DNA of 64,000 nucleotides from Patiria pectinifera. Taxonomy: Eukaryota; Echinodermata; Asteroidea; Valvatida; Asterinidae. Below the pieces are notes generated by a model. It saw only the letters and a list, made by a program, of their open reading frames with translations, was not told where the DNA came from and did not search any database. Location: the NCBI GenBank assembly GCA_029964075.1, contig CM057144.1:8703281-8767280 (forward strand), given 5' to 3'. The position numbers and the translations under genes were made by a program. Below are positions 35,140 to 62,530 of this stretch, one piece after another. How positions within the stretch are numbered: position 1 is the stretch's first letter; each line of letters opens with the position of its first letter.

Positions 35140-35930
35140 CTAGACTTATGTTTGTGGACAAACGCAGGGCTGTTTTGGTAACTTTTTTGTGACACATGAC
35201 ATGTAAAGTTTCAAGTATAAGTTCCATCAAGGAAGGATGTGTAGTTCTGTTGATAATAAATGGTGGCATATAATATGTGATGAAATTCTCACGGGGCTTT
35301 GAACTATGACGTCATATGTGACGTGATGATGTCATGATAACGTCACATGTCACGTGATGACGTCATGATGACGTCACATTCATTTTCATCTATAACTTTA
35401 ATTTTTTGGTAAAGAGCATAGCCAGAGCATATATCGTTGAAAGCAAGTTCACATCTTTCACCATTTTTGAATTACAAGGCACTTCCGGTTTCAACCGGAA
35501 GCAAGGGTCACGTGATTTTGCACATAATATAAAAAATGAAGACCCTGTAATATTCTATCAATTCTGGCAAAAGTCCTGTTCAGGTCTCTCACGGTTGATT
35601 TTATATTGATTTTCAAAGATTAAATCTAATAATCTTTAATGAGACGTCACGTAACCCATGATGATGTCATCATGATGTCACTTCAATTTTCACCTATAAC
35701 ACATCCCGGACCTGAAGTTCTGGAAATAGATGCACCTTTATTGTGACGTCATGTGACTCGTGATGACGTCATGATGACGTCATGATGACGTCATGATGAC
35801 GTCAATGTTCGGCACACATTTTTTGGTGGCGGTCTAAGTATGTGCCAGGTATAAAGGCAATCGGATTGATTTTAGTGGTCAAAGTGCCGGTAACAAAAAT
35901 ACGTGTACAAATGCAATGGGCAAAAATGAC
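35140..35930 (-). mobile_element. Helitron-like non-autonomous element (CTAG 3' end)
   Basis: On the minus strand the element ends with hairpin GTTTGTCCACAAAC, a short spacer and CTAG, followed by T (plus 35140-35143), the pattern of Helitron 3' termini. The 5' side at about 35930 has GTCATTTTTGCCCATTGCAT. The body is packed with TGACGTCA, including four perfect 11-bp TGATGACGTCA copies in tandem at 35761-35804, and includes the AACCGGAAGCAAGGGTCAC marker. It lies in the first visible intron of the minus-strand gene. No Rep/helicase is encoded. Confidence 0.6.
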
Positions 35931-35935
35931 TGAAA

Positions 35936-36592
35936 GGCCCCCCCAAAAAGTCTTGTTGATGTTGCAGATGATGACGCTTCGATTCCCTTAAAACTCTCAA
36001 AAATATCCTTCAGGGTGGAGCTTGAGGTGACCTCAGTAAGGCCATAAAGCTTGAGAATTCTGCACCCACTTACAATCTCGACTGACACAAACATTCTTTG
36101 GGAAATTTGGAAAGTCAAAACAAAAATCAGAGAAAACAGTAACGTCAGACCATTACAGCGACATCCGACCCTGTGCTGCCAGGCTGGTCATTAGTCTGCT
36201 CCCTTACACATTGGGTTCATTAAAAAGCGTTTACAGGTTCCAGATACACGACTTTCACTTCCACACATGCGTCTCCTTTCAACACACACAATCACACAAA
36301 TACAACACTGTCTGCAAATGGTGCCTAACTATTCTGTGCAAAATATATGGGAGCCCAGAAAGGCCACATAAAGCTTATACTCAATCGTAACCCCATCTAA
36401 AAACACGTTAAAATTGTGCTGCAGCAGGATTCCAGTCAAACCAGTGAGTTTGGTGGTTTGAGACATCATCTTACCTTGAAAAAAAAAACCTTTTTAATTT
36501 TGCCGACACGCATGGCTATGGCGACACGCATGGCTACGGTGACGTGCACGCATACCACAAACCGGTGCCTTTTTTTGGGGGGGGGGGGAACC
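35936..36592 (-). mobile_element. Harbinger-like element related to 61128-61475
   Basis: Ends are GGCCCCCCCAAAAAG and, at the other side, the complement of GGTTCCCC...AAAAAAAGG with CCGGTTT and TGGTATGCG. The stretch 36308-36475 matches the reverse complement of 61190-61355. It is about 300 bp longer than that copy. The extra part has a minus-strand run (STLKDIFESFKGIEAS, 35955-36118) that faintly resembles the C-terminal family motif seen at 49600 and may be a captured or chance fragment. No clear duplication. Confidence 0.6.
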
Positions 36593-36609
36593 AAAAAAAA
36601 CCAAGGCAA

Positions 36610-39130
36610 CTAGAAATGTGTTTGTGGACAAACACTGAGCTGTTTTGACCGTTTTAAGCAACAACTGTCATGACGTTTTAGCAACAACTGTCATGAAGGA
36701 GTTTCATCCAAGTGGAATGTACATGAGCATTCTATAGATGGTGGTCTTAGTGTCGATCCGCTGTAAAATTAAAAAAGTCCCAAAGTGGGGTGTTGAACAA
36801 ACACATGTGTTATCCTTTGGAAAATGGAGAGCATGCATGTAGTGAAATTTAGTGCGACATACATGTAGCCTGGTTAGGAGACTAGCAGAATTTGGGGGAA
36901 TTTTCATCGTGAGAAATGATGTCACGTGTCACGTGTCACGTCATTATGACGTCATGATACGGGCTGCATCTTCAGATGTTCTAAGTGAGTGCCAGATTTG
37001 AAGTCGATCAGATGTTTTTTTCCTGTCATTTTTGGTGACTAGAAAAAAATATCAAAATTCAAAAAAAAATAACAAATGAGATGATGACGTCATGATGATG
37101 TCGCTTTTGATTTTGAATTATTGTATCAGTACCTACTTACTTACCACGTTTCATAACGATCGGGCTTACCCTTGTATGTGGGGAAAAAAATCAAGTTTTT
37201 GAAAACGTCATGATAATGTCACACTTTTTTTCAAAATTGTGTGCATCTATGACCTAACAAATCTATTACAACATGAATTTTGAATTTACCACATGCTGTT
37301 GATGAGATATAACTAAAAGGTCCAAAAATTGAATAAATCTATAAAATCACACAATGACGTCATCATAACTTCACTGTAATTTTTGTCTATAACATATATC
37401 CAAAAATACATGCATACCGAGTTTGAAACCAATCGCACTTCCGGTTCTTTAGATGTAGGGCCCTAAAATATGCACATTTAGGATGACGTCACATGACACG
37501 TGATGACGTCATGATGACGTCATGATTCGGCCTGAATTTTCAGATGGTGGTCTAAGTATGTGCCAGGTTTGAAGTCGATCGGATCATATTTCATGAAATT
37601 TTTGGTAGTTAGAAGAAAATATCAAAATTAAAAAGATTCATAAAAAATCAGATGATGACATCATTATGACGTCACTTCAGATTTTGAATGCTTTCATCAA
37701 TACCTACCTACATACCAACCAAGTTTCATAAGGATCAGCCATACCCTTATATATGAATTAAAAAAAAAAAATCACATTTTTGATGACGTCATGACGACGT
37801 CAAACATTTTATGAAATATTTTGCATCAATCTATAACCTAATAAACCTTTTACAAAAAGAATTCCGAAATTACCACTTTCCATTGATGAGATGTGAGTAA
37901 AAGGTACAAAAATTGAATAATTTGTCTATAACACGTCCCGGAATACCTGCATACCAAGTTTGAACCCAATCAGACTTCCGGTTCTGTAGATATAGGGCCT
38001 TAAAATATGCACTTTCAGGATGATGTCATGTGACACTTGATGACGTCATGATTCAACATACATCTTCAGATAATGGTCTAAGTGTGTGCTAGGTTTAAAA
38101 ATGATCGGATCATATTTTATGTAATATTTGGTAATTAGAAGAAAATATTCAAATTAAAAAAAATTAATAAAATACGAGAAGATGACGTCCTGATAACGTC
38201 CCTTCCGATTTTGAATACTATTATCAGTACCTACCTACTCGCCAAGTTTCAAAACGATTGGACATACCCTTATATGTCCATCAAGAAATCACGTTTTTGA
38301 TAACGTGATGATGACGTCACACATTTTTCAAAAATCTGTATCTTCCTACGACCTAACAAACCTATTACAAAAAGAGTTTTGAATTTAGCACGTTCTGTTG
38401 ATGAGATATGGCTTAAAGGACCAAAAATTGAATAATTCATATAAACTCACATGATGACGTCATTGCGACGTCATTGCAATTTTTGTCTATAACACGTTCT
38501 GGAATACATGCATACCGAGTTTGAACCCAATCAGACTTCGGGTTCTGTAGATATTTAGGGCCTGAAAATATGCACTTTTAGGATGATGTCACGTAACACG
38601 TGATGACGTCATGCTGATGTCATGATCCGGCCTGAATCTTTAGATGGTGGTCTAAGTGTATGCCAGGTTTGAAGTTGATCGGGTTGCATTTTATCTAATT
38701 TGTGGTGATTATAAGAAAATATAAAATACAAAAATTTAAAAAAAACACATTAAAAATCAGATGATGAAGTCATGATGACGTCATTTCAGATTTGGAATGC
38801 TTTTATCAATACCTACATACCTACCAAGTTTCATAACGATCGGACAAAACCTTATATTCTGGGACGTGTTTTAGACAAAAATTGCAGTGACGTCATTGTT
38901 GACGTGATTTTATATGTATTATTCAAATTTTCATTATCTGTTGATGATCTGTTATCTGTTGATTTTATATGTATTATTGAAATTTTCATTATCTGTTGAT
39001 GAGATTTGGCTTCAAGGTAAAAAAATTTGAATAATACATATAAAATCACATCAACAATGACGCCACTGCAATTTTTGTCTAATCTTCAGATGGTGGTCTA
39101 AGCTAGTTCCAGGTTTGAAGTAGATCGGAT
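36610..39130 (-). repeat. ~560-bp tandem array, CRE-rich, with CTAG hairpin end
   Basis: CTAG at 36610-36613 and hairpin GTTTGTGGACAAAC (36620-36633) mark the same 3' end as the other Helitron-like copies. The marker TCAGATGGTGGTCTAAGT-GCCAGGTTTGAAGT recurs near 36970, 37535, 38065, 38640 and 39070, giving about 530-575 bp per unit. Each unit contains ACCAAGTTTGAACCCAATC, CTTCCGGTTCTGTAGATA and several TGACGTCA palindromes. There is no coding potential. It lies in the long intron of the minus-strand gene. Confidence 0.8.
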
Positions 39131-39279
39131 GTGAAAAATAATCCTATCCTATGGAAAAACAAGTGGACAAAAAAAGAAAAGAAAAAAAAGAGAAAAAAAA
39201 AAGAGAGAAAAAAAAAGGGGTGTTTTGGTGTGTACACCGAAACAGCTTAAAATAACACAAAATATAAATCTTAACAAAA

Positions 39280-39320
39280 ACAAAGGCTGTTTCAGCATGT
39301 TTGCCGAAACAGCCAATAAA
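39280..39320. repeat. Hairpin GGCTGTTTC...GAAACAGCC
   Basis: GGCTGTTTCAGCA-TGTT-TGCCGAAACAGCC (39287-39316) is a strong stem-loop. The same stem recurs at 52971-53001 and half-stems occur next to the CTAG ends, so it seems to be a structural part of these repeats. Confidence 0.6.
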
Positions 39321-39589
39321 CATATATTCCGTGGATGGAAGAACCTTCTTATGATCTCAAAGAGCAATCCACAAACCAAATTTGAAGTTCATATGTAAAG
39401 TATTTTTTCAAGTTATCGCACTGACAAGATTTCTATTGTTTTGTTTTAGCCACTGTGACCTTGACCCTTGACCATTCAGCCCCAAATGCAATAGGCTTCT
39501 TAAGATTACCTAGAGCAATCCACAAACCAAATTTTAAGCTCATATGTAAAGTATTTCTCAAGATTTTACCGGACACACACACACACACC

Positions 39590-40400
39590 CACACCCACCA
39601 CATACGTGTGTAAATGCCACCAATCGTGGACACCCCATTGTCCCTAAATCCTCTTTCCTTTGTTTGTACTCTTAACTTTTTAGCGACAGTTCTCATTGGT
39701 TTTGTACACGATTTGAGATCGTGGACGTTCGGTCAATTGTGGATGTATTGTTTGCGCCCCAATTCTTTTGTCCTACGTCCACAATTGCCGGTGTTTACAT
39801 ACTCACACCGACATGGACCCCCCATAGTCCGTAATCCTCATTCCTTTGTTTGTACCAACTTTTTAGCAACAGCTCTCATTGGTTTTGTACATGAATTTCA
39901 ATCGTGGACGTTCAGTCAATCGTGGACCCATTGTTAATTCCCTTAACCCTTTTGTCCCTAGTCCTTGATTACACACGTGTTTACACACGCACCCACTTTT
40001 GTTTATGGTGTAAATCGAGGATTTACTATTGTTCCTCTTCCCTTTTCCTTTTTATACTCTTTTTGCAACTTTTTTGCAACAGCTCTCATTGGTTTTGTAC
40101 ACGTTTTCTAATCGAGGTCATCCTCTCTTTTGGTTTCTGTCCTCAATTCATCAATGATGTTGCACGTGTGTGTCCTTGACTTACACAATAAACCTACTCA
40201 AGTAGTCGTGTATCGACCTCCCACCATGAATGTTCTATTGTACCTCTTTTGTTTGTACCTTAACTATTTAGGAAGACTCCCATATCTTTTGTACAACTTC
40301 CAAATCGCGGACATATGCTGGGAATCGCTGACGATATTGTTCTCTTTTGTTCTCTGTCATTTATCGTCCACGTTTCAAATGTCTGAACACGCCCACCCAT
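39590..40400 (+). repeat. ~185-bp tandem array, repeat B
   Basis: Units share CTTTGTTTGTACT...AACTTTTTAG, CTCTCATTGGTTTTGTACAC and ATCGTGGACGTTC, at about 39655, 39845, 40050 and 40250. Single copies lie at 5860-5955 and 42665-42800. It also contains ACACACGTGTTTACACAC-like words. No coding function. Confidence 0.7.
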
Positions 40401-41425
40401 ACATGTCCATACTCAAATTTGTATCCGTGTGGAGACATGGCTTTGTTCTCGTGTACAGAATCGTGAGAGGGTCGAAAGCTATTTTCAAAAATGCTCCTAT
40501 TTTAACCAGAATTACTGTCCTGGGTTGAAATTCTGACCAAATATCCTTGTTTAAAATACTATAGATTAACAAGAATACCTTGAAAATTCCTACTTTTTGA
40601 CTAAAATCCATATATCTGTTTTGTGAAATCCCTGTAGAGACCTATTCACTTTTTAGTCCGTGGGACAAGAGGGTGAAAACACTGAAGTTTTCGAGATAGG
40701 CATTCTGGTTCGTCTAATTTTATAACACTTTCCAGACATATAGATTATGATGTACCCTATCGGAAAACCTTTGTTCCCAACTCCACAGTTTGTTTGGGAA
40801 TGAGAAAATCTGGGATAAAAACGCCGAGAAATTTGCATGAGAAAAAAATAAATAAGAAACAGCGCCCTCTATAGTCAGAAACCTTTGAGCATGCAATGAG
40901 CGTTTGCTAGATGATACTTCTTTCATATTACATGGTTATTTTAGATTTTTGTTGTTATTACTCATCAGGATGAATGTTATGTATAAATAGCTAAATAAAA
41001 ATTGATTGGTATGGTTAATCCCCAGATCAGAATAATTTTGTGAACTCTTCTCTCAGGGTTACATCTTTTAGTTTTGCTCCAACTTTTGGGGTTTTTTTTG
41101 GGGGGGGGGGGAATAAGCTGAAAAGAAAAATGGCCATAATTTTTTTTTGTATACAGAGTTTCCCCCTTTTCAATATCAGTGAGGCAGAAAAAAAAGAGGA
41201 TTATGCATCTGTTAAGTTGAAACGTCTTATTACAAAACCACTCAAAAAGGACAGTTCTCAAGCTCTCATACGTGTACTGAAGTTGATTTTATTTGTTTAT
41301 AAAAAAAATGACTCATAAAAATAAAGATGGCAATTTTATTCCAGGCACAATGTGGTTTTAAGTAATCACCAAAAGAAATACAAATACACTTAATACCACA
41401 AATGAAGACCCGGCAGTATTGTATC
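40401..41425. other. No gene recognised
   Basis: Intron sequence of the minus-strand gene with a G run near 41098. A GCGCCCTCTATAG word at 40862 resembles the CTCF-like core of the tandem units. No exon seen. Confidence 0.35.
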
Positions 41426-42250
41426 GATTGCCACAAAAACAAAATCGAAACTGTAACAGTTGATTTTATATTGATATTCAAAGATTGAATATAGGATCTT
41501 TATTTGCTTGTAATATGATACTTGATGACGTCATTGAGACGTCATTACCAGAAAGCTCAAGAGCTATATTAACTGTGCTATATATAGCCAAATCTTGATA
41601 ATATATCTTACGGTTGATTTTTTTAGCAATATTTAAGGTTTAAAGGTCTTTTCATTGTAACTCTCAGTCTGATGACATAATAATTTTTTTTTTCACGCAC
41701 AGGTATTGTCTGCATTAAGGTCATCATGTATACTAATTTTGAAGCGATTACCGCAAATTTCGCCACAGACATCAACTGAAAATGCATTTTAGACATTTTT
41801 TTGCCGCTAGAGCGGGCTTGAACACTTCATGGCATCACTGATCATTTTTTGGAAAGGTCAACCCAGCCAAATGACTAACATCATTAAAAGCAAGTTCATA
41901 TCTTTTTCCACTTTCAAATTATTAGACACTTCCAGTTTCGGCCGGAAGGAGGGGTAACGCGATTTGACGCGCACGAGATAAAATGAAGAGCATATAATAT
42001 GTCAATTCCTGCAAAATTCAAGTTCCAGTCTCTCATGATTGATTTTATATTGAATTTCAAAGATTAAATTAATTATGTTTTGAAGTGACGTCACGTGACC
42101 CATAATGACGTCATGATGACGTAGGTATGAAAAAGCACATCTTCAGTGGGTTGTGCATTCATGTATTGACAATTGAAGTTCATATATTTTTGTTACTTTG
42201 ACAAACAGTTCTGAAGAAGAATAAAAAACAAAACAAAACTAGAGTTTGAA
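41426..42250 (+). repeat. ~590-bp repeat family unit
   Basis: Homologous to 30.3-31.2 and 50.8-52.4 kb: TGTATCGATTGCCA, GTTGATTTTATATTGAT, TTGATGACGTCATT, TGAAGCGATTACCGCAAAT, the degenerate CCGCTAGAGCGGGC and CGGCCGGAAGGAGGGGTAAC. It ends near CTAG at 42240. Confidence 0.75.
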
Positions 42251-42309
42251 GCAACAAACACACGTTGGTCTAAAGGTTTATGTCTGTTTAATTAACAGAA
42301 CATATGGCT

Positions 42310-42475
42310 TTTTCCTATTGTTGATTGTTGATTGTTGATGTTGATTATTGATGTCGATTGTTCATGATTCTTCTTGATGTTGATTGTTGATTGTTGATGT
42401 TGATTGTTGATGTTGGTTATTGATGTTGATTGTTCATGATGATTGTTGATGTTAATTGTTGATAGGTGACTGTTC
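42310..42475 (+). repeat. TTGATGTTGATTG microsatellite-like tract
   Basis: Imperfect repetition of GTTGATTGTTGATGTTGATT. It yields an Asn/Ile/Ser-rich minus-strand frame that is not a gene. Confidence 0.85.
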
Positions 42476-42649
42476 ACTGTGGATCAGGGAACAAAGTTTT
42501 TTCGATAGGATAACCATAATCTACTGCCTGTGAAGTTTTATAAAATTCGGTGAACCAGATCACCTGGCGAGGGAAAAAAGGCTTGTCCCACGGACTATTT
42601 AGTCAGGAGACCTTTACAATCTTTTGTTCCGCATAATACCCGGCTCTCA

Positions 42650-42810
42650 ACAAGGCATCATTTTTTTTTGTATTTACCTGCAATCATGGACCCCTTTTGT
42701 CCCTCTTTTGTTTGTACTCTAACTTTTCAGGAATCGTCAATTGCGGACCTTCAAGAATTGTGGACCCCATTGTCCTCTATTGTTCAACGTCCCCTATTGA
42801 ATGCAGAAAC
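42650..42810 (+). repeat. Repeat B single copy
   Basis: GTCCCTCTTTTGTTTGTACT and CATTGTCCTCTATTGTTCAA followed by CCCCTATTGAATGCAGAAAC match 5855-5960 almost word for word. Confidence 0.7.
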
Positions 42811-43657
42811 AAACTAACCCACCACACACACTGACAGAAACGGTATGCCTCTTCGGCTTTGCCGCAGGGCATTAAAATAACACACAAAAACGAAAAACAT
42901 GCTAATATGGATATGGTTAGCATACCTCTCAACATTTAAAAGCCCGAAATAAGAACACTACTGGACGGGGTTCCAAGATTTTGAAATTTTAAAAGTTAAA
43001 AAAAAATGTGAAATGTGTTTAAATTTTTCATGCAGCCTGGTTTTCATTTGCATTCAAAACGTTTTTTTTTAGTGTCTGAGAAGTTATTAATTTGTAAAGT
43101 TGGTTAGGGGTATCCAATCCCATCATCTTGGAACGGAATCAGGACATCAGCGGTCGGGGTTTGCGATCCACTATATTTCCTTGTTATATATGGCGAATAT
43201 AAAATGGGTGAAAGCCGTTCCCCCAAGTTTGAAAGAATACTCAATTTTTTTTTAATCCCAAAACTTCAAAATAGGGACGAGTCCTATTAAATGGGGATGG
43301 CTTGCTGGTATGGGAAAGAAATGGCAAAACCTCCAAGAAAACATGAATTTGCCCCCTTCTCCAGATGTTGGAACTCCTGTTTAGCTACAATTTAGCTACA
43401 AAATTGACTGAGTTTGTGCACCTGTGAAGGCAGAAATGGTTGTTGAGATTGAATTGGATATAATTGTTTATGCCAAAAGGGAAGCATCAAGCTCTCAGAG
43501 GGCTGAGATGGTATTATGAATGTTTCATTGGCCCGATGACCATGGGCAATGATAAGGTAAAGCACTTTGACCCTTGGTAAAGGAGCCTTTCAAATACACA
43601 ACTTTATGATTCAAGTTCACTAGCTTAAGACTTGTCATGATATATCTACCCAATCAC
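42811..43657. other. Intron sequence, nothing recognised
   Basis: Part of the long intron of the minus-strand gene. No repeat boundary or exon recognised. Confidence 0.35.
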
Positions 43658-43782
43658 CTGTCATCTTGTCTTGCCTGGTCCCTTTTCCCTGTTTTCTCCT
43701 TCCCTTTATTGATCTTCTCGTCTAAGGGGGCTGATGCATCTCCTTTCTGGTGTCCTTTTTCTCCTTCAGATTTCATGAGTAG
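43658..43782 (-). CDS. Charged low-complexity gene, first visible exon
   Basis: Acceptor TTGTCACACAG and donor GACAG-GTGATT flank 125 nt. The frame begins LLMKSEGEKGHQKGDASAPL and ends DQARQDDR, leaving two bases (phase 2) that join the single base of the 34806 exon to give Arg. The same Lys/Glu/Gly/Asp-rich composition supports membership. The in-frame ATG (third codon) could be the start, or more exons may lie upstream on the minus strand. The 8.85-kb intron to the next exon is nearly all repeats. Confidence 0.5.
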
Positions 43783-44150
43783 CTGTGTGACAACCATTTA
43801 CAATCATAGTGAAATTTGTCATTTATTGAACACCTGAATGCAAAGTGCAATCAACTGGGAGTTTCGTGGAGTTTAATTAACAATTTGAGCACAAAAGGTT
43901 TGATAGTACTGTAAGAAAATTTGATTTTATTATTGTCCCAATTGCACCTTTAAACTAAAGAGAGCGCTTTGGCCACAGTAATCCACAGTAGTCATGCATT
44001 GCACCTGTTCTCCAGTCAGATTAATGCCACAAAACTATTTCAGAGCTTACTTTTTTCCAACTTAACCCACTTTAAACCACAATAGATAGTATTTGGACTG
44101 CAGTCAAACCGCAGATGGAGCTGTCATGCTAGTCTTTGTGTTTACTCTTA
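43783..44150. other. No gene recognised
   Basis: Upstream side of the first visible minus-strand exon. No promoter words recognised. Confidence 0.35.
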
Positions 44151-50749: not shown

Positions 50750-52450
50750 AAGTAAATAACTAGGAGTTGTAGGAACAACCACATGGTGTTGTGCCATTGA
50801 TTACTTTGCCACACACATCAACTCAAAATGCATGTTTAAATCCATGTTTGACTTTGTCAACATGCCGCTAGAGGGTGCTTTAACATTTAATGACGTCACT
50901 CGTAATTGTTTTCTGAAGTACAGCCTAGGCAGACACTCACATCACTGAAAGCAAGTTCACATCTTTTGCCAATTTCAAATAATAAGGCAATTCCGGTTAT
51001 GACCGGAAGGAAGGGTCACATGATTTGGCACTTAATACCAAATATGAAGACCCTGAATATTGTATCAATTGCCATAAAAAACAAATTCAAATCTGTAACG
51101 GTTGATTTTATATTGATTTTCAAAGATTATTTAAAGGAATCTTCATTTGCTTGTAATATGATACTTGATGACGTCATTGTGATGTCATTACCAGAAAGCT
51201 CAAGAGCAATGTTAACTGTTCTGTATATAGCAAAATTTTTAATATAATCTCTTGCGGTTGATTTTTTAGCAATTTGTTAAGGTTAAAGGGCTTTTCATTG
51301 TAACTTCCGGTAAGATGACGTAATCAATTTTTTTTTTGGCGCACAGGTCTTGTCTGCATTAAGGTAATCATGTATGTTAATTTTGAAGCGATTACCGCAA
51401 ATTTTGCCACTACATCAACTGAAAATGCGTTTTGGACATTTTTTGAACCTGCTGCCAGAGGGCGCTCAAACACTTCATAGCGTCACCGATCATTTTTTTG
51501 GAAAGGTCAACCCAGCCAGACACTAACTTCGTTGAAAGCAAGTTCATATCTTTTTCCACTTTCAAATTAAAAGGCATTTCCGGTTTCGACCGGAAGGAAG
51601 GGTCAAATGATTTGGCACTTAATACCGAAAATTATGACCCTGCAATATTGTCTCGATTGCCATAAAGAACAAAATCAAATCTGTAGTAGTTGATTTTACA
51701 TTGATTTTCAAAGATTATTTATAGGAATCTTTCTTTGCTTGTAATATGATACTTAATGACAACATTGTGACGCCATTACCAGAAAGTTCAAGAACTATGG
51801 TAACTGTGCTATATATAGCCAAATCTTGATTATATCTATTACGATTATATCTATTACGGTATTTTTTTAAGCAATTTTTGAAGGTTTAAAGGTCCTTTTA
51901 TTGTTACTTCCGGTCTGATGACGTAATCAATTTTTTTTCGTGCACAGGTCTTGTCTGCATTATGGTCATCATGTTCATTAATTTTGAAGCGATTATCGCA
52001 AACTTCGCCACAGACATCAAGTGATAGCGTTTTGGACGTTTTTTAAACCTGCCGCTAGAGGGCGCTTCAACACTTCATGGCATCACCCATCATTTTTTTT
52101 TAAAAGGTCAATCCAGGCAGACACTAACATCGTTGAAAGCAAGTAAGTTCATATCTTTTTCCACTTTCAAATTATTAGGCACTTCCGGTTTCGACTGGAA
52201 GGAAGAGTCACGTGATTTTATGCACACAAGATAAAATGAAGAGCATGTATTATAATGTTGATTCCCACAAAATTCAAGTTCCAGTCTCTCACGGTTGATT
52301 TTATATCGAATTTCAAAAATTAAATTTATTACTTTTTGGAGTGACGACACGTGACCCACGATGACGTCATGATGACCTAATTGCAAAAAACTACATTTTC
52401 AGTAGGTTGTGCATTCATGTATTGACAATTTAAGTTCATATGCTTTCTTC
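50750..52450 (+). repeat. ~590-bp tandem array x3
   Basis: The marker GACCGGAAGGAAGGGTCA or variants occurs at about 51000, 51587 and 52196, i.e. 587 and ~605 bp apart. Each unit has TTGAAGCGATTACCGCAAA, a CRE-type TGACGTCA or its decayed form, and the CTCF-like core: CCGCTAGAGGGTGC (50865), CTGCCAGAGGGCGC (51452) and CCGCTAGAGGGCGC (52052). No coding potential. Confidence 0.85.
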
Positions 52451-53049
52451 TTGCTGAGAAGAACCAAAATAAAAAACCAACAACAACAATAATAGTAAAC
52501 CTTTACAATAACAATAGGTGTTGGGCTGAAGCCCAACAACTAAATAGACAGAATCTGAAATCATTCTTAACAAGTTCGCACCGCGATTATTTTGACAAGA
52601 ACGGAACAAGGCAGGGGTTTACTTTTTACTCCATATGTGTTTATCAGTCATCCGTTCTGAATACTGCAAACGTCATCCAGTGTAGCGTGAATATCCGACT
52701 CCATGAAATGTGGACTCATTGGTAGTAGTGCGCACGCGTGAGTACGATACTATGCTATTTTTAGGATCGTTTGGGGAGAGTGACCTGTCACGTGCGAGGG
52801 ATTAACCAATAAAAGGAAAAAAGGGGTCCGATTTTCATAGGAGTCGGATTTTCATGTGACACCGGCACGAACTGGTGAAGTACTGTATACTGTATTCTGT
52901 AAGAACTGTATTCTACCTTTTTTCATTCTTAAGTTACAAATCCTGTTTCAGATCACTTATAACAGTTATTGGCTGTTTCGGCACTTTTGCCGAAACAGCT
53001 TTTGTTTTCGTTAAGATTTTTCTTTTTTTCCTTTTTTATTTTTTTCCCT
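52451..53049. other. Boundary sequence with two hairpins
   Basis: GTTGGGCTGAAGCCCAAC (about 52518) and GCTGTTTCGGCACTTTTGCC-GAAACAGC (52972-53000) are strong stem-loops. They lie between the tandem array and the next Helitron-like element. No gene recognised. Confidence 0.45.
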
Positions 53050-55461
53050 TCTTTTTCAGCCATTCCCCATAGCATTTGTACACGTTTTACAGTGGAAGGC
53101 ACTTTGGGCACTAAAATCAATCCGATCGACTTTATACTTAGACCAGCATCTGAAAATATGCCCCGAACATTGACGTCATGGTGACGTCATCGACTAATTT
53201 TTTATAGAATTTTGAATATTTAATTTTTCCAAAAGACTTTGTACACAGAAATAAAAAAAAAATTGTCGATTTTCAAAGGGCATTTTGGACTCTTTGCCAG
53301 TAATTCATTTGCACCAATCTTTGTCCAAGCAAAGACCCTAATTCAAACAACATTGTGTAATGATGACGTCATGATGACGTCGTCCGGTGTGTATGTATAG
53401 GCAATTAAATTGTGACACTTTTAATATTTAAAAATGCATAAGAAATCAACCGTACGCGTCCGCAGCATTCTGTTACCGGCAAGTGGTAGAGTAGGTTGAG
53501 GTCTTTATTTCATTCAGTGTGCGTGAAATCACGTGACCCTTGCTTCCGGTCGAAAAAGGCCAAAACCGGAAGTGGCTTATTATTTGAAAATGGTAATAGA
53601 TATGAACTTGCTTTCAACGGTGTTAGTCTCTTGGCTAAAAGTATTCTTCAAATCATCTACCAATGACGTCATGCAATCTTTGAGCGCCCTCTAGCGACAG
53701 GTTGAAAATTTGCAAAAATGTATTTTGAATAGATGTTTGTGGCGAAGTTTGTCGGAATCGCCTAAATATTGGTGTATATGATGACCTTGACCCACTTAAG
53801 ACGTGTGCGAAGTTTTAGGCGAATGACGTCATCAGACCGGAAGTTATAATAAAAAGACCCTTTTTCATTTGCAAATTCCTGAAAAATCAATTATGGCAGT
53901 TTTTATGTTTAATGGCAGTTTTATGGCAGTTTTTACTTTAATTGTCGATTTAAGGGTAGGTCTAAAACATTTCAAAGCTTCGAGGCAATAAGCGAACTCG
54001 GACATGCTTTGCGCATGCTTAAAACTTCAGGTTGACAATACCTCTGCTCCAAAACATGCACAGAACGTCTATATGTTCAGTACATACATGTACACGTACG
54101 TTACGCACATACATCGTATGTCAGTCAGCCTGCAGAGCACGTGTTGCCGAGGTCAAATCCTGTCCACATCACAGTGACCGTTTTAGCCGATTTTCGGCTA
54201 ACTTTGACAGATTTTATGTTCATGCATGCGCATAGTCAGGGACGTATAATAAAAAATCATAATGCTGAAAAGCCCTATGTTACGTATTTAAAGGTGCAGT
54301 TTTTCTGCAGTGGGATTTTCCACAAGTCTTTTCCTATACAACACTGATATCTTACTGAATAGGAAAGAGAAATTGTTTTTTTTTCGCACTGTCATTCGAT
54401 TGAACATATTCCTAAGGGTCAGAATATCAAGTAATATTTCATAAAAATGTTTCAGTTCAAAGGCAAATTACAAATTTAAAGGTGCAATTTTTCTGCAGTG
54501 GGATTTTTTTTTTTAACCTATTAACTTTGTACACGTGTTAGCCCATTGACTTTGTACAAGTTTTCAACCCACCATTTCTATAACTTGGCGATCTGGAATC
54601 GTCATCAATGTTACAGCCAAGGAAGACCCTCATACAAAAATTATGCCAAGACTATGACGTCATGATGACGTCATCACCTATTTATGCTAAAGTCAATTTT
54701 CTTAATTATATTAATCGAATTTAAGGTCAAAGCTATATGACAAATTCAAATGACGCAACGACTGCATGTAAGTTTGACTGCAAAAATAAAAATAAAAACC
54801 CGAAAAAAAAGGCTTAGGAATTGACCACAAGTGTGTGGCATGTGGAGAAAATTAAACTTTTTCCAAATACGGTGGGTAATACTGTCAAAACATCCCCTTC
54901 TAGTGCATGCTTCAGACACATGTGATTGCATTGGTTTTAAATACTGATCTTTGGCATTTCGCCTTTTGTTGACTTCCGCCAATGCCATCTTAGATTGCTC
55001 TCAGTTTCCTTTATTTTGTAAACACCCCTATACACTTATAATTGAGCACATTAATACGAACTAAGCCCGCATCGCCGGCTTCGAGGGTTAATGAATAAAA
55101 TAAATCACTACAAGGAAACTCTTTACAATTTATAACTGGGGAGAAACCTTGAATGAAGACCTGCTACAATTGGAGTTTTACGTAACATTAAATGGCCATT
55201 ATTCTATTATATGGTCTGTCTGCAGCACAATACTATCCAATTTGGTGTAGCTTGGTATGAACCTAAGCCGCCATGTCGTATACATAAATCCAACTGACGT
55301 CATGATGACGTCTTGACATGACATCTCACTCACATTAAAGCTGCATTTTCTACAGCCTATAAATCTACATTTGCATTTTCTTTTTACTACACCTGCATTA
55401 CCTATCAGTCTGTAACATAATGCCGAAACAGCCCTATGTTTGTCCACAAACATATGTCTAG
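53050..55461 (+). mobile_element. Helitron-like element, + orientation, CTAG end
   Basis: The 5' region has CATTCCCCATAGCATTTGTA and AAAATCAATCCGATCG. The 3' end at 55461 is hairpin ATGTTTGT-CC-ACAAACAT (55436-55453), four bases, then CTAG and an immediate T. Helitrons end in a hairpin a few bases before CTRR and insert next to T. The body contains several TGACGTCA pairs, an inverted ~590-bp unit (53470-53960) with its CTCF-like core (53684-53696), and no Rep/helicase, so it would be non-autonomous. The exact 5' terminus is not fixed. Confidence 0.6.
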
Positions 55462-58163
55462 TTATTATTGTTATTGTGGTGAGTTCTTCCGTGAGAAACG
55501 CGGAGACTTAGAGAAACAAACATACGTTTCAACTATCTTATTACTGTCGCTCGGACACAGGTCCGACCGGTTCAGAATCAGAACAACAACTAACTAATTC
55601 CTGTCTTGTAAACTGTACTTATTTAACAAAGTGTTTACGATGGAATAAAGAACCAAACATTCTAATAATAATATTTACGATATAATTCTATACTTCAGGT
55701 AGCGTGTAGCGTGGCAAAACAACTTTATGGGCTTCGTCAGAAGAGGGCGCTAGCGCGACCAAAACAAGTTCGCGCTGCTTACATGCGTCTTTGATTTAAG
55801 CGCAGCAGGAATGCATCGTCTGTGCAGGTGCTCTGCACTCAAAGCGCGCACGCACAAGTCATCGCTGCGTAAGTAATTCAGAGGATATTTTACCAGTAAT
55901 CAATAAGCAATCAATCAATAATCGATGAGCAATAAAGTCTGTGTAATTTCACAACATTTTTATTATAATGACGGGAAATGGGGTCATTTGGGAGACATTC
56001 CCATAGACTTGTGCACAAAATTGTTCAAACTTAAATGTGCCCTAATCCAATACTCCCTTGTTCTTTTTCCACGAATTTCGGTATGCTTACTAAATAGACC
56101 ACGAGCAACAAATATAATCTAATTGCAACACTAAAATTTTGCCTCTAAAAGGGGGGCTTTGACATTAGGGAGACATTCGTGCAAAGAAATTACGATAACG
56201 TGTCTCCTTAATGGTACCTTTACATGTATTGTTTGTCACAAAAATCATGTTTGTTCTCAAAATGTTAATTAAATTTTTAATTACTTGGTAGTTAGTGTCA
56301 TTTACATTGGACTGGATGCACAAGATCCCGAAACCCAAGAAACCCAAAACTCAAAACACCAACTCCAAAGACCAAAGAAACATCAGTGTTCCCTTAGGCC
56401 AAACAAAAAAAATTGTGTGTTTACGGTAACGGCCTGAAAAAAATCCAGGTAGGTAGGTAGGGAAATAATTTTATTTTGTACTTTTTTTTTTCATTTCAGT
56501 TCTGCATGCCCATGCTTGTTCTTTCGCAAAAAAAATTGTATAAAACCACTATTCAAGCATTGAAGATATTCAATCGCTACATTTCAATCCAAATTAATTT
56601 GTATCGTCGGCAAGGGTTCTCCCCAGGATTTTTTCAAACATGTGGGGGAAGATTTGCTCTGATTCAACAACCCGAAAATGTTTTAACTTAAGAAGCTCTC
56701 TGGTGCATTTTAGAGCAAATCTGGGGGTCTTTATCTTAAGATTTGTCCTTGAAATTCAGAAGAGATCTTGTAGGTCACTAATATTTTTGTAATTAAAGAA
56801 AAAAAAATCAAAATTGTTAACTTATAAAAAATTAACATTTCACAACCTGTGTTTCATTGCTTCCTAACTAGAAAAGTATGAATTACATTTACATGTAAAT
56901 TTCAAATTAAGAAATTAAGGTGGAGAAAAAAACAACTTTTGCTTCCGATTACATGCCTTTCAATAAAGCGTCAGTAGGTCGAAAAATTATTTTGCCAATT
57001 TTTTGGGGGCACTGATTAATGGAGCATCATTCGTACTAATCATAGAGCAAGGAATCATGTTTATTTTGTGCCTGGATTATTTTCGTTTGCGCCACGAAAA
57101 TTATCAAGACTGGCTATTAGAAGTAATTAAAACTTGCCTCACCTAATTAAAAATATATTTGAGGTCGGTGGTTCCACTTTATGTTTAACATACATCACGG
57201 CCGCTGGCACCGCCAACATTCCGCCTGGCTGGCCGAACATCGCGCCGTGCTCACGGCCCCGTGGCCGAAAATCTTGCACTACTGCAGAAACACGCTACGA
57301 TGTTTCGCCACAAGTTCGAGCTTTGCAATTAATGGAAAACACATACACAGAAAATAAATATCACGTTCTGTGAATTAATTCGCAGAAATTCTCTTTCTCC
57401 AGCGATGTTTGTTTGGTAATATTTTTACGATCCAACTTCGGCCCACTACATCATCATGCTGTATGATACGAAGTAGTATGGACCGGTGAGAGAGGCAGTA
57501 GTCACTGGTTCCGGTCGTTCATCATAGCATTGATTCCGTTATTTGGCGAAGGGAACCAGTGTACCATGTTGTATGTTAGCTTGGTGCAGCTGGTGGTCGA
57601 CAGAACACGTCATCGTGTGCATTTTGATCACACATGCATCGGAAAAACAGGATTTTGGTCAAGATTTTGCATGTCAAGATGAAATAATGGCGTATGTAAC
57701 GATCAAATTGTGCATTTTAATGGCGTGTATGATAATTATATTGTGCGTATCAGGGGCTAAAAAATGTGATTTTTTTTTTGTTGGCGTATCGGGCCGGCCG
57801 CAATTCCAGCGTATCAGGCCGATACGCACGTTTGTACGTGGGGAGAACCATGCCGTCCGTCGGCCAGCCAGGCGTACCCCAATGCGTTTGTGCAAAAATA
57901 ATCGTACTTCGTAGTTTGAGAATTCAAGTTTTGAGATCGTCGCGATTTTCGCACGTTTAACACAGGTATGTTTGTGTCAAATCATGGTCAGATTCAAGTG
58001 TGGAAAATGGTTTTTGTTCATGGCAAATAATTAAAAGTACTTGAAATGTTTGAAATTTGTCAATTATCAACCTTCAAAATGGCAATAAAAAGTTTGAGGT
58101 CGGCAATTTGGCCGAAAAAATTCCAGGTCGGTCGGGTTACCGTAAACACACCATTTTTTTTGT
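55462..58163. other. 2.7 kb without a recognised gene
   Basis: Mixed AT-rich sequence. AGAGGGCGCTAGCGC at 55742 has a CTCF-like look. A GC-rich patch at 57190-57310 and frames at 57540-57960 show no family motif. Sequence 58040-58160 may be the start of the Penelope-like fragment's upstream region. Confidence 0.35.
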
Positions 58164-58657
58164 TTGGCCTTACCCTACATCAAGGGACTTTCGGAAAAAC
58201 TCACATTTTCCAAGACCATGGGGTCAGAACATACCATAAATCGATCAACACCATCAGATCGTTTTTTGGTTCACCCCAAAGATAAGGCCCCACATCAAAA
58301 CAAATGCGATGTTATCTACAGGATAGAATGTCCCGATTGCCCTAAAACATATGTGGGAGAGACAAGCAGATCGCTAGGCACAAGGTTCAAAGAACATTCC
58401 AACCTGAAGGGACTTCAGCCCCTTTAACAGCGGTTGGTGAACACATCAAAGATCACCAACACTCCATCAGCTTGGAAAATGTCCAAGTCATTACCAGGGA
58501 GGACCAGTTCTGGAAAAGGAAAATACGCGAAGCAATCGAAATCAAGACACAAAAACCATCCCTTAACAGCGACACCGGATACAACCTGCCCGCCATCTAC
58601 AACAACCTTCTGGTTTGTGATTGCCCAAAAGGTGGTCACATGACCGGAGTGGTTTAA
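58164..58657 (+). pseudogene. Penelope-like element GIY-YIG endonuclease relic
   Basis: The frame reads ALPYIKGLSEKL, then LVHPKDKAPHQNKCDVIYRI and ECPDCPKTYVGETSRSLGTR and FKEH. This is the linker and GIY-YIG core of Penelope-like retroelements, with the modified VIY...YVG motif, Cys-x2-Cys finger and catalytic Arg. A one-base shift near 58405 follows, then VGEHIKDHQHSISLENVQVI and REDQFWKRKIREAIEIKTQK (catalytic Glu region) and LNSDTGYNLPAIY, ending at TAA. Only the endonuclease end is present; no RT was seen upstream. One frameshift suggests a moderately recent fragment. Confidence 0.85.
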
Positions 58658-58666
58658 GTCACTATG

Positions 58667-58703
58667 CTGAATGAAGATGTCGTGATGACATCGAAAGCTA
58701 CGT
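58667..58703 (+). ncRNA. Hammerhead-ribozyme-like core after the Penelope-like fragment
   Basis: CTGAATGAA (58667-58675) is followed by a perfect stem GATGTC-GTGAT-GACATC (58676-58692) and GAAA (58693-58696), then CTAC-GTC. This is the layout of a hammerhead core (CUGAUGA, stem II, GAAA, then a GUC cleavage triplet), known from Penelope-like elements. Two extra A residues in the first core strand and an unpaired stem III mean it is probably inactive or only a relic. Confidence 0.35.
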
Positions 58704-58880
58704 CGCTGCAATATTTTTGATTCAAACAGGTATCTAAATATTTCTTATCAACGTGATGGAATCCAAAAATAGTTTACATGCTGTTACATCGGATATATTT
58801 GTGAATTTTTTAAGGCCTGTGAATTTAACGACCATGGGAATATTAGATCGTTGTTTGTTAGATACAAGAAAAAGTAAGAA

Positions 58881-59400
58881 CTAGAGGTCTATGTATGTTT
58901 GAAAACAGAACATAGGGCATTTAAAAATTCGTACAAAATCACACTTTGACGTCACGATGACGTCACCCCATTTTTTACCTATAACACATCCTGGTCTACC
59001 TACATACCAAGTTTCAACCCAATCGAACTTACAGTTCTCCAGATAAAGGACTTTATAATATGCACATTTAAGAGGACATCATGTGACCCATGATGACGTC
59101 ACCATGACGTCACCTCAATTTTCATCTATAACACATCCCAGTCTACATACATATCAAGTTTCAACCCAATCGGACTTACAGTTTTTTAGATATAGGACTT
59201 TACAATATGCACTTTTAGGATGACGTCACGTGACCCATGATGATGTCACCATGCTGTCACTCTTCGGGACACATCCTTGCTATAGGGACTGTGCCTGTGG
59301 TAACTTTCAATGATGTGTGACAAAGATTAATGCAAAAAGTGCCGCACAGAAAACTCGTGCACAAAGTCTATGGGATTGTGGGTGGAACAAGAAGAAGAAG
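58881..59400 (-). mobile_element. Helitron-like copy, second subfamily
   Basis: CTAG at 58881-58884 with CTATG...CATAG hairpin words beside it (58889-58915) marks the 3' end on the minus strand. The body has ACCAAGTTTCAACCCAATC, TGACGTCACGATGACGTCA (58946-58964) and another pair at about 59094. The inside-facing end abuts the next copy at 59402. Confidence 0.5.
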
Positions 59401-59627
59401 ACTAGAGCTATGTCTGGTCGATGAACAGAACATAGGGCTTTTCTGTATTTTTGGGGGTTGTTTGTCCATATGGAAGACCATATCGTAGTTACAGGACTAA
59501 CTTCTCCACATATAGGACTTTAAAATACACATTTTAACATGACGTCATACATGTACATGTATGTCCCGCGATGATGTCATCGTAACAACACTTGGCAATG
59601 CACATGTTTTCATTGTGGTCTTTATGT

Positions 59628-60383
59628 CAGAGATGCCACAGGGCCTGCTTGAAAAAACCGGAACGGGGTCTGCTTGAAAAAAACGGAACTGCTGCTTGAA
59701 AAAAACGGAATTTGTGTGTGTGTGAAAAAGCCACTCAGAGTCCGACACAAAGTCCCCGATGTCATCTTTATCTTGTAGCCAAGCCAAGTTCTGTTTATTT
59801 TTTAATTTTGCTTCTATGGCCTTTAAAGCTGTCGGTTCGTTCAATCACTTTGACTTTTTCCATATTCCTAATATTTTTTCTGCCTACCCGAATTTTCAAC
59901 GTAATATTCGACACGAAACATGCATGATTCCACAACACTGCTGTCGGTGTACCGGTGTACATGATCCATTCCTTGCACTACGCGATGCGCTCAACGAAAA
60001 CATGGTTGGTACCCGCATTTTGTGTATTCACATATAACACTGCGATCGGAAACCACCGATAGCTGAAATGATAGACTTGATTTCCAGGCTGAATGCTACG
60101 TGTGCTTAGCACACAACACGCCCACACGCGGTGAAGCACACGCGAGGCGCCGTTGTACACTGCGTGCAATTAAGTACGTTGGCCGCTTGTATCGCATGCA
60201 GGCTTGGCATTAACATACACAACGTTGTGCCATGCGTGCGCCTAAATCGAGGTAAAAATCAACGTATTTTCACAGTTTTTTCCCTCTTTTTCTGGTTAAT
60301 TTGACGGCCGGAAAAACCGGAACTTTGTGAGATTTTTTTTAAAAACCGGAATTCCGGTTAAAACCGGAAAAGTGGCATCTCTG
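59628..60383. mobile_element. hAT-like element (CAGAGATGCCAC ends)
   Basis: CAGAGATGCCAC and GTGGCATCTCTG are exact 12-base inverted ends. TTATGT lies outside both (59622-59627, 60384-60389). The uninterrupted site type, GTGGTCTTGATGTGCACC, is at about 60894. Near the left end TGCTTGAAAAAAACGGAA is repeated three times, and AAAACCGGAA words recur at the right. 756 bp, no transposase. The duplication is shorter than the usual hAT eight bases. Confidence 0.82.
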
Positions 60384-61127
60384 TTATGTGCACCAAGTTT
60401 GACGTCAATCCCATAAAAGAAAGTGTAAAATTTGGTAAGAGGAATAAAATCTTAAATATTAAAAAAAATCGTAAAAATATCAACAGATGACGTCATTTTA
60501 AATTTTGCATACTTGTGACATTATCTACCTATCCACAAAGTTTCATGTCGATGGGAACTTCTGCTATATGCGTTTTGGAAAATCCCGTTTTTGATGACTT
60601 CATTGTGACATCACACATTTTAAAAAATGTTTTGCATATACCTTTTACCTGACAAACCAAATACAAAAGGTCTAAAATTCATTAATCATATAAAATCCCA
60701 CGATTACGTCATCATGACGTCACCTCCATTTTTACCTAAAACACATCCCGGTCTACCTTTACACTAAGTTTCAACCCAATCGGACTTACTGTTCTGTAGA
60801 TATAGGACTTCAAAATATGCACATTTGTGATAACGTCACGTGTCCCATGATGACGTCATCGTAACAACACCTGTCAATGCACATATTTTTATTGTGGTCT
60901 TGATGTGCACCAAGTTTGATGTTAATCCAATGAAACAAAGTGTAAAATTTTGTAAGTGTTATAACATTTTAAATATTAAAAAAATTATAAAAATTAACCG
61001 ATGACGTCATGGTGACGTCATTTCAGATTTTGCATACTTGTGAAACCATATACCAATCCACCAAGTTTCATGATGATTGGGCCTTCCCTTATATGTATTT
61101 TCAAAAATGGCATTTTTGATGACGTTA

Positions 61128-61475
61128 GGCCCCCCAAAAAAGTCTCCGGTTTCTGGTATGCGCGTCGGCAAAATGAAAAAGTTTTTTTTGTAATGAAAGA
61201 TGATGTCTCAAAACCGCCAAACTCACTGGTTTGACTGGAATCCTGGTGCTGCACAATTTTAACGTGTTTTTAGATGGGGTTATGATCGAGAATAAGCTTT
61301 ATGTGGCCTCTCTGGACTATCATATATTTGCACTAAGTTTAGTCGGGCACCATTTGCAGTCATCAGCTGACATTTGAAGCAAAAAAATCAGGGTAAAACA
61401 ACAAAAAAAGCCGCGTCGCCGCACCACTTTTTGGGCAAGCTCCATACCAGAAACCGGAGACTTTTTTTGTTGGCC
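61128..61475. mobile_element. PIF/Harbinger MITE, TTA-flanked
   Basis: Ends GGCCCCCCAAAAAAGTCTCC and the complement of ...GGAGACTTTTTTTGTTGGCC are inverted repeats, continuing into GGTTTCTGGTATG. TTA flanks both sides (61125-61127, 61476-61478). It sits inside a Helitron-like unit. A longer relative lies at 35936-36592. Confidence 0.9.
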
Positions 61476-62289
61476 TTATCGTGATGTCGCACTTTTTTCT
61501 AAATTTTTGGCATACACATATTACCTAACAAACATAATACAAAAAGAATGTTCAATTTTGCATGTTGCGTTCGTGAGATATGGCTTAAAGCTCCAAAAAT
61601 TCAAAAAATTCTATTAAATTGCACGATGACATCATCGTGACATCACCTCAATTTTTACCTACAACACATCCCTGTCTACCAACATACCGAGTTTCAACCC
61701 AATCGGACTTACAGTTCTGTTGATATAGGCCCTCAAAATATGCATGTTTGTGATGACGTCATGTGACCCATGATGACGTCATCATGACATCACTCTTCGA
61801 GACACCACTTCACTATAGGGTCATCACCTGAGATAAGTTTCCTTGGAATAGGACTTTGTTTTAAGTCGAAAGTGTCTCACACCAAAAACATGTGCAAAGT
61901 CAATGGAATTTGGGGTGGTCTCAAAAAGATCAAAAAGAAAAGAAAAAAAATCAGAACATAAACAAAGGCTTTGTTCAGCGGAAAAGCTAAAGAAAAAAAA
62001 TCAGAACATAAACAAAGGCTAAGGATAAATCGTATTTAATTTCCCCCCAGAAATCTATTGGAAAAATGTTTTGAAGTTCAGATGATTAAGTGTTATGACT
62101 TTTTTCTTTCCATTAAATAAACCCCTGGAACATATTTCGTGTACCAAAGAGGTTCGTAAATAATTAACATTTTCTTTCACGCTACACGAGTATACCAGAT
62201 ATACTTTTGAACTTTTTTAAAGGCCTGTGAATTTAATTACTACAGGAATATTAGATCGTAAATTGTTAGATAAAACTTACCAAAAAAAA

Positions 62290-62530
62290 CTAGACTTACT
62301 TAATATGTTTGTGGACAAACACAGGGCTGCTTCGGCAATTTTTTTTGTGACATGTGACATGAAGAGTTTTAAGTAAAAGTTCCATCCAGGAAGGATCTGC
62401 AGTTCTGTTTATAATGAATGCTGGCATATAATATGTGATAACATTCTCGTAGGGCTTTGAATTATGATGTCACATGTCACACGATGACATTTTCATGACA
62501 ACACATCAATTTTCATCTATAACACATCCT
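62290..62530 (-). mobile_element. Helitron-like 3' end fragment
   Basis: CTAG (62290-62293), hairpin GTTTGTGGACAAAC (62307-62320), then TTTTTTTTGTGACATGTGAC and AAGTTCCATCCAGGAAGGAT match the first 250 bp of the 35140 copy. The homology ends near 62530. Confidence 0.65.

What the first reader, a model, noticed from the sequence alone, without database searches (positions are those of the whole stretch)
35140..62530. A Helitron/Helentron-like family with a GTTTGTCCACAAAC hairpin and CTAG-T end
Seen: at 35140, 36610, 55458 and 62290 the same stem-loop is followed by a short spacer, CTAG and then T; 58881 and 59402 have CTAG with a related hairpin. Every copy points its body away from the CTAG. 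Known: Helitrons end in a hairpin close to CTRR and insert beside T without target duplication. Inferred: the TGACGTCA-rich repeats of this window are bodies of one non-autonomous rolling-circle family.
Basis: partly seen in the sequence, partly recalled or inferred. Interest (0 to 1): 0.75.

Follow-up and report, generated by a model that had tools for sequence, protein, structure and literature searches.

The report
Self-nesting rolling-circle transposon family
This is a large family of small jumping DNA pieces that carry no genes of their own, copy by a rolling-circle-like route, and often land inside the T-rich start of their own relatives, building chains of nested copies.

Summary
GTTTGTCCACAAAC precedes CTAG|T at 35140, 36610, 55458 and 62290; a fifth palindrome (6646) is followed by CTAC. 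The source genome has 1,871 exact copies of the palindrome; the reversed control has 8. Of 36 palindromes held, 33 have CTAG, with T next in 33 of 33. These are not canonical Helitrons: no 5' TC, and T|T rather than A|T targets. They match non-autonomous Helentrons/Helitron2 (HINEs): a 5' subterminal inverted repeat that folds into a hairpin, a T-rich leader, a body usually carrying TGACGTCA (often in tandem), a matching 3' repeat, a palindrome and CTAG|T. A Rep-helicase-endonuclease (Helentron) gene set exists in the genome, but I could not tie it to these ends. Nesting explains the closely spaced ends: E1 sits in the leader of E3, E6 in that of E7. Of 38 3' ends held, 17 abut a sibling: 4 at its 5' hairpin, 13 in its leader, none in a body, none reversed. 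Self-insertion in Fusarium Helitrons and CTAG-ended oyster elements with subterminal repeats are already in print, so this is a new member of a known kind, with unusually clear leader-targeted nesting.

The parts
35140..39317 (-). Outer element E3 (type I): 5' subTIR 39302-39314 + inverted copy 39285-39297; T-rich leader 39284-39250 | 36609-36593; body to 35936; 3' subTIR 35168-35180, palindrome 35150-35163, CTAG 35140-35143. Interrupted by E1 and by a MITE.
36610..39249 (-). Inner element E1 (type I) nested in the leader of E3: 5' subTIR AGCTGTTTCGGTG 39235-39247, about 560-bp tandem repeats with TGACGTCA, palindrome 36620-36633, CTAG 36610-36613
52966..55461 (+). Element E2 (type I), both ends present: 5' hairpin 52971-53000, leader from 53001 to about 53058, 3' subTIR 55421-55433, palindrome 55438-55451, CTAG 55458-55461
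62290..62530 (-). Element E4 (type I): palindrome 62307-62320, 3' subTIR 62325-62337, CTAG 62290; 5' end not found (right limit approximate); its 3' flank is the repeat R
59402..61988 (-). Element E6 (type II): 5' end AGCTTTTCCG at 61988-61979, palindrome and 3' subTIR about 59408-59445, CTAG 59402; nested in the leader of E7; carries a MITE at 61126-61470
58881..62020 (-). Outer element E7 (type II): leader 62020-61989 | 59401 onward, body to 58881, CTAG 58881; its 5' hairpin is not clear
50760..52540 (-). Element E5 (type III): 5' hairpin GTTGGGCTTCAGCCCAAC 52520-52537, about 600-bp tandem body 50803-52441, CTAG|TT at 50760 with hairpin GTTGTTCCTACAAC
42239..42320 (-). 3' end of another element (CTAG|TTTTG at 42239, hairpin GTTTGTTGCTTCAAAC) sitting in the T-rich leader of the element at 41380-42238; its 5' end was not found
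41380..42238 (-). Leader and body of an outer element related to E5; its 5' end was not found
6636..6671 (+). Decayed 3' end: exact palindrome 6646-6659, CTAC instead of CTAG, followed by the leader of a sibling fragment (6680-6967)
35937..36592 (.). Unrelated MITE-like insertion with inverted ends (GGCCCCCC...GGGGGG) within E3; relative of 61126-61470
   Evidence: ends read by eye

Best explanation
These are non-autonomous Helentron/Helitron2-type rolling-circle transposons (HINEs), moved in trans by a Rep-helicase encoded elsewhere. Shown by sequence: where the 5' end is found, the 5' subTIR folds on itself into a hairpin and a T-rich leader follows; the body often holds tandem TGACGTCA units; and the 3' end is a second subTIR copy, a palindrome and CTAG, with T next in every CTAG copy held. 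At paralogous leader sites no target duplication is seen (a duplication of T alone inside a T run cannot be excluded). Inferred: Rep nicks at the 5' end, one strand is displaced, the 3' palindrome with CTAG ends the transfer, and the strand is joined into T|T on a T-rich strand. Because each element carries its own T-rich leader on that same strand, siblings insert there in the same orientation. This gives stacked 5' hairpins upstream and serial CTAG ends downstream.
For: Exact palindrome 937+934 in the 613.5-Mb source genome, control 5+3. 36 palindromes held: CTAG in 33, T next in 33 of 33, TT in 30 of 33, spacer 6 nt in 30. 3' edge in 19 copies outside the three clusters: palindrome and CTAG are alike by selection, but the unselected columns 25-44 nt upstream average about 0.56 pairwise identity, the first flank base is T in all 19, the second column is 0.8, the third 0.49, columns 3-15 range 0.23-0.63 and columns 16-40 are about 0.26. 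5' hairpin plus matching 3' subTIR: E2 0 mismatches, E3 2; of 60 Markov sequences 9 had any pair this good and 1 had two. 5' hairpin fold z -9.3 (E2), -6.9 (E3), -4.0 (E5). Outer leaders joined across the insert align with intact leaders: 243/255, 250/254, 170/189, 83/104, plus E3 against E2. 17 of 38 ends abut a sibling, all same-strand at hairpin or leader; 14 of them placed by BLAST, 36610 by the joined alignment, L024 733 and L025 1023 by the sequence. 28 same-strand against 1 opposite adjacent pairs within 3.5 kb among the 100 listed sites. PF14214 in the genome: 148 matches. L043 encodes Helitron_like_N and PIF1 with Exo_endo_phos.
Against: No autonomous copy with these ends was shown: L043 lacks this palindrome and leader, though its 5' side was not held. 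The 5' boundary is fixed only to within a T run, and joined leaders in L024 and L025 differ from intact ones by 5 and 16 nt of T-run length. E4, E7, 42239 and 41380 lack a clear 5' end. Several hairpins are weak as folds: z -0.8 (E3 3'), -1.4 (E1 5'), -1.45 (59402), -1.3 (50760); the E6 5' fold (-2.0) was run on a stretch that cut off its first bases. 3 of 36 palindromes have no CTAG. L026 and L028 share their 3' flank, so they are a duplicated locus or both sit in one repeat. L023 has one 5' hairpin for four CTAG ends, which simple nesting does not give; amplification must be added.
Confidence: 0.9

Rival explanations
1. Canonical Helitron1 family (5' TC, CTRR 3', A|T target), as the reader's 'known' sentence describes.
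For: 3' CTAG with a hairpin a few nt upstream, T on the 3' side.
Against: Where found, 5' ends are subTIR hairpins after T, not TC; 5' flanks end in T or TATT, with TTTTAA at E1; subTIR and inverted copy present.
Confidence: 0.05
2. Head-to-tail chains come from rolling-circle concatemers or unequal exchange (end bypass), not from repeated insertion into leaders. (This concerns the chains only and can be true together with the best explanation.)
For: L023: one 5' hairpin, four CTAG ends, units of 1,062-1,139 bp at 91-95% identity; spacings of 1,760-1,767 bp recur five times among the 100 listed sites. Tandem Helitron arrays elsewhere are ascribed to bypass (PMC4067079, passages).
Against: Stacked 5' hairpins with both halves of the outer leader on either side of an inner element in six pairs, one of them type II inside type I (L033). 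Concatemers would repeat hairpin-body-CTAG units and would not split a leader.
Confidence: 0.25
3. Satellite-like repeat with no mobility; the ends are only repeat-unit features.
For: TGACGTCA units are tandem.
Against: 3' edge against unrelated flanks; dispersed sites on both strands; paralogous empty leaders.
Confidence: 0.02

Closest known systems
HINE / DINE-1-like non-autonomous Helentrons (PMC4067079; section 4 part 1 of 3, sections 8 and 11, and find passages seen)
   Same: subTIR near the 5' end, second copy tens of nt from the 3' end, 3' palindrome, TT/T-rich target, no target duplication, variable T at the boundary, internal tandem repeats
   Different: CTAG at the 3' end (the only mention of CTAG in that text is the Phytophthora proto-Helentron, which targets A|T); heavy nesting in the T-rich leader
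Cg_HINE elements of Crassostrea gigas (PMC7492417, abstract and sections 7 and 9; PMC7992393, passages)
   Same: subTIR + inverted copy + microsatellite leader, satellite-like central repeats, subTIR + palindrome at the 3' end; PMC7992393 reports CTAG-ended elements, 257 of 751 with subTIRs, 33% of those with the 5' inverted copy
   Different: PMC7992393 reports 5' TC and A|T targets (86% of cases) and calls them possible intermediates; here no TC and T|T. Sequences were not compared (not held)
Helitron2 (Bao and Jurka, PMC3627910; Fusarium FoHeli, PMC5148889; passages seen)
   Same: asymmetric terminal inverted repeats, 5' hairpin, compensatory changes; FoHeli shows self-insertion, elements with several 5' termini, and a model for composites
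   Different: Here many non-autonomous copies in an unnamed 613.5-Mb genome (probably an animal; inference), with the leader itself shown as the landing site and one case of cross-type nesting (type II in type I)

Membership tests
HINE (non-autonomous Helentron) | 5' subTIR within a few nt of the 5' end, with inverted copy | tested here: met
   clear in E2, E3, E5 and in L023-L025, L031, L033, L037, L038; weak in E1; partial in E6; unclear in E7; not found in E4, 42239, 41380 and in most single loci, which were fetched with only about 2.6 kb of upstream sequence
HINE (non-autonomous Helentron) | 3' subTIR complementary to the 5' one, then a palindrome near the 3' end | tested here: met
   first 5' subTIR base complementary to the last 3' subTIR base in 10 of 11 type I elements with both ends paired (my tally; L038 is the exception); a 3' subTIR was found in 32 of 33 CTAG ends at up to 3 mismatches (L034 lacks it)
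HINE (non-autonomous Helentron) | T|T target, no target duplication | tested here: met
   shown on paralogous leaders only, no second haplotype; T-only duplication within a T run cannot be excluded
HINE (non-autonomous Helentron) | No coding capacity | tested here: met
   longest stop-to-stop frame lying wholly inside the window's element intervals is 113 aa; no Pfam family over its cut-off in the 10 of those 35 frames (60 aa or more) that I scanned, one hit below cut-off
HINE (non-autonomous Helentron) | Shares ends with an autonomous Rep/helicase/endonuclease Helentron of the same genome | tested here: inconclusive
   Helentron gene set present, but the one locus held lacks this palindrome and leader; its 5' side could not be fetched
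Canonical Helitron (Helitron1) | 5' TC | tested here: not met
   for the copies whose 5' end was found
Canonical Helitron (Helitron1) | CTRR 3' end with hairpin | tested here: met
Canonical Helitron (Helitron1) | A|T target | tested here: not met
   5' side is T in the nested cases and T-rich elsewhere; the exact 5' boundary is uncertain by a few T

The most novel reading that the evidence does not exclude
The T-rich leader just inside the 5' end is a self-addressed landing pad. Members of several terminal types insert there, on the T strand only, so chains of same-orientation nested elements grow. Compounds running from an inner 5' hairpin to an outer CTAG can then move as units, and this is how multi-body, satellite-like HINE chains arise.
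Probability: 0.5. Interest if true: 0.55.

Novelty: new member of a known kind. Interest (0 to 1): 0.42.

Why it matters
It gives a clear case in which the anatomy of HINEs explains their arrangement. T|T targeting plus a T-rich leader on the same strand makes same-orientation self-nesting the expected outcome. That offers a testable route from a transposon to tandem, satellite-like DNA, and a warning that annotation tools looking for TC...CTRR Helitrons or for simple tandem repeats may misread such chains. It also adds CTAG-ended, T|T-inserting elements to the known range between Helitrons and Helentrons.

Tried and rejected
Considered and dropped: a canonical Helitron with 5' TC (a first candidate 5' end for E4 near 62536 was abandoned when the subTIR hairpins were found). 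Considered: 39317 as the 5' end of E1 instead of E3; rejected because E1 has its own subTIR at 39249, beginning AGCT as its 3' copy ends AGCT, while E3 pairs GGCT with AGCC, and because the joined E3 leader is colinear with E2. My ab initio scan for 5'/3' module pairs at loose settings was little better than its null (at least 13 CTAG ends in the capped listing against 1-11 in 10 null sequences); only the strict setting separates E2 and E3, and 1 of 60 null sequences reached two. The terminal pattern found nothing in viral contigs, nor did the window's LINE protein. Literature, all within the held library: 8 papers hold at least four of the Helentron/palindrome/CTAG/tandem/non-autonomous terms; GTTTGTCCACAAAC is found only in one unrelated barley paper, by listing; a search with TGACGTCA, Helitron, tandem repeat and amphioxus gave 5 papers, none holding TGACGTCA; searches for nested or head-to-tail Helitrons and self-insertion led to PMC4067079, PMC5876387 and PMC5148889 (passages in 90, 91, 117). 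The L043 Helentron did not share the ends.
Full report
OBSERVATION. On the element strand it is followed by 6-13 nt, CTAG and T in all four listed copies. A fifth exact palindrome at 6646 is followed by CTAC. 58881 and 59402 end in CTAG|T after a different palindrome.

ANATOMY. The 3' palindrome of E2 is preceded by GCCGAAACAGCC, whose reverse complement GGCTGTTTCGGC stands at 52971(+) and at 39302-39314(-), each followed by its own inverted copy, so that a 12-13 bp hairpin forms (z -9.3 and -6.9). This defines E2 (52966-55461, +) and the 5' end of E3 (39317, -). After the 5' hairpin comes a leader beginning TTTGTTTTCGTTAAGATTTTT or a close variant and then T/CT-rich, then a body with TGACGTCA units, often in tandem. 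E5 has another hairpin and leader. 50 of 57 TGACGTCA sites fall in the assigned elements. Twenty-two other stretches of contig C1 (220 kb, positions chosen without regard to repeats) hold 38; four of the 20 stretches around listed palindromes (L030, L039, L040, L042) hold none, so the motif is common but not universal in the bodies.

GENOME COPIES. The window lies in a 613.5-Mb assembly of 1,020 contigs; organism not given. The palindrome occurs 1,871 times there, its reversal 8 times. I held 43 sequences when I counted (window, 22 stretches of C1, 20 chosen around listed palindromes on C1 and C2, three of these being clusters); a 44th, L043, came later. They contain 36 exact palindromes: 33 with CTAG, T following in 33 of 33, TT in 30. 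The three without CTAG are L029, L036 and window 6646. In the 19 CTAG copies outside the three clusters the palindrome and CTAG are alike by selection; what is informative is that columns 25-44 nt upstream average about 0.56 pairwise identity (my mean of the printed columns), the first flank base is T in all, and identity then falls through a T-rich stretch to about 0.26 beyond 15 nt. Two of the 19 (L026, L028) share their flank, which the column means include, and two (L037, window 36610) have a sibling's leader as flank.

NESTING. E3 is interrupted by E1. E3's leader stops at 39250 in a T run, E1's own 5' hairpin starts at 39249, E1 ends with CTAG at 36610, and E3's leader resumes. Joined, E3 is colinear with E2 (scores by cut point). 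E6 sits in E7's leader in the same way: the joined leader is 83/104 identical to E6's own, with CTTT|TCTT at the join and no gap there. Genome copies repeat this: L024 243/255, L025 250/254, L037 170/189 of aligned bases, with 5, 17 and 20 gap positions, in L024 and L025 almost all in the T run, and L033, where a type II element (hairpin CTTTTCCGC...GCGGAAAAG, CTAG at 2013) sits in the leader of a type I element whose own CTAG is at 2657 (this pair was read, not aligned across a join). Six pairs in all, every inner element in the leader and in the same orientation. Because I found these by looking for stacked leaders, I also ran a test without that choice: up to 400 nt (94-185 nt in 17 cases) after each of 38 CTAG ends (33 type I, plus 58881, 59402, 42239, 50760 and L033 2016) against nine reference elements on both strands. 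Counting joins at the CTAG, 17 abut a sibling: 4 at its 5' hairpin after a T run (L023 4818, L024 733 and 7007, L025 1023) and 13 in its leader (reference position 33-105 where BLAST gives one). Of these 17 the call places 14; 36610 rests on the joined alignment, L024 733 and L025 1023 on the sequence; L025 5416 is weak and 42239 aligns by BLAST only from base 54 (from base 3). The other 21 have no match starting at the CTAG; two of them (L024 577, 62290) have matches farther down the flank, from base 59 and base 304. None joins a body, none is reversed. The loci are not a random draw: 14 of the 38 ends come from three clusters chosen as clusters. The L023 and L025 ends are partly tandem copies of one event, so independent events number about a dozen (my estimate). 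Of adjacent palindromes within 3.5 kb among the 100 sites listed (C1 and part of C2 only), 28 pairs are same-strand and 1 opposite.

COVARIATION. 5' hairpins occur in versions AGCTGTTTCGGTG, GGCTGTTTCGGCA, AGCTGTTCCCAATT, GGCTTTTCCGC and GTTGGGCT, each with its matching inverted arm. In 11 type I elements with both ends paired (L023, two in L024, L025, L031, L033, L037, L038, E1, E2, E3) the first subTIR base is complementary to the last base of the 3' subTIR in 10, all but L038 (my tally). This is what pairing between 5' and 3' repeats would need, though two subfamilies inherited by related copies would look the same.

MECHANISM. Inferred from published Helitron biology (Helraiser, PMC5876387, passages; Helitron2 model, PMC3627910, passages): a trans-acting Rep nicks the element strand, the 5' and 3' subTIRs pair and displace the 5' hairpin, the 3' palindrome and CTAG end the transfer, and joining occurs in T|T. 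The leader offers such T|T sites on the correct strand, so siblings enter in one orientation. Steps shown here: ends, T|T without visible duplication at paralogous sites, orientation, nesting. Steps inferred: enzyme, circle, pairing.

PARTNER. The genome has 148 PF14214 matches (lower bound). L043 (C14) encodes Helitron_like_N in one frame and PIF1 plus Exo_endo_phos in the next, the Helentron set, but the 9.5 kb held has neither this palindrome nor this leader, and its Rep frame runs off the 5' side. The link is open.

KNOWN OR NEW. The structure is that of HINEs (PMC4067079) and Helitron2 (PMC3627910). CTAG-ended oyster elements with subTIRs and 5' inverted copies are described as possible intermediates (PMC7992393, passages). 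Self-insertion and multiple 5' termini are described in Fusarium (PMC5148889, passages). Tandem Helitron arrays in bat and silkworm are known, and a similar pattern was suggested for Helentrons (PMC4067079, passage). What I did not find in searches is a statement that the T-rich leader is the landing site, or cross-type nesting; I saw listings and passages, not whole papers, and most subscription journals are outside that library. Verdict: a new member of a known kind, with unusually well resolved self-nesting.

Noticed in passing
source genome, contig C7: Roughly 86 of 148 Rep (PF14214) matches lie on contig C7 by my count of the listing: one contig strongly enriched in Helitron/Helentron genes.
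   Followed up: no
window 19082-21414 (-): Non-LTR retrotransposon pieces: Exo_endo_phos_2 in one frame and RVT_1 in another.
   Followed up: partly
window 61126-61470 and about 35937-36592: MITE-like elements with GGCCCCCCAAAAAAGTC-type inverted ends; the first seems flanked by TTA (read by eye).
   Followed up: partly
window 5419-6637: Element with inverted ends (GTGTTACAACTG; CCGATAATGTATCAC-like repeats) abutting the decayed 3' end at 6646.
   Followed up: no
window 58792-58880, 62198-62289, 62660-62710: Repeat R, the target of both E7 and E4 in its T-rich stretch; the third, partial copy carries no insert.
   Followed up: partly
window 17140-18332: 1.2-kb minisatellite of 11-bp units (GGGCAGGTGTT).
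   Followed up: no
window 14034-14106 (-): tRNA-like sequence (Rfam tRNA 49.9 bits) next to an inverted repeat at 14128-14366.
   Followed up: no
C1:7120355/7122115, C2:4607204/4608971, 6918347/6920112, 6928110/6929875, 16295756/16297517: Palindrome pairs with nearly the same spacing (1,760-1,767 bp) at separate places; possible compound units moved together.
   Followed up: no
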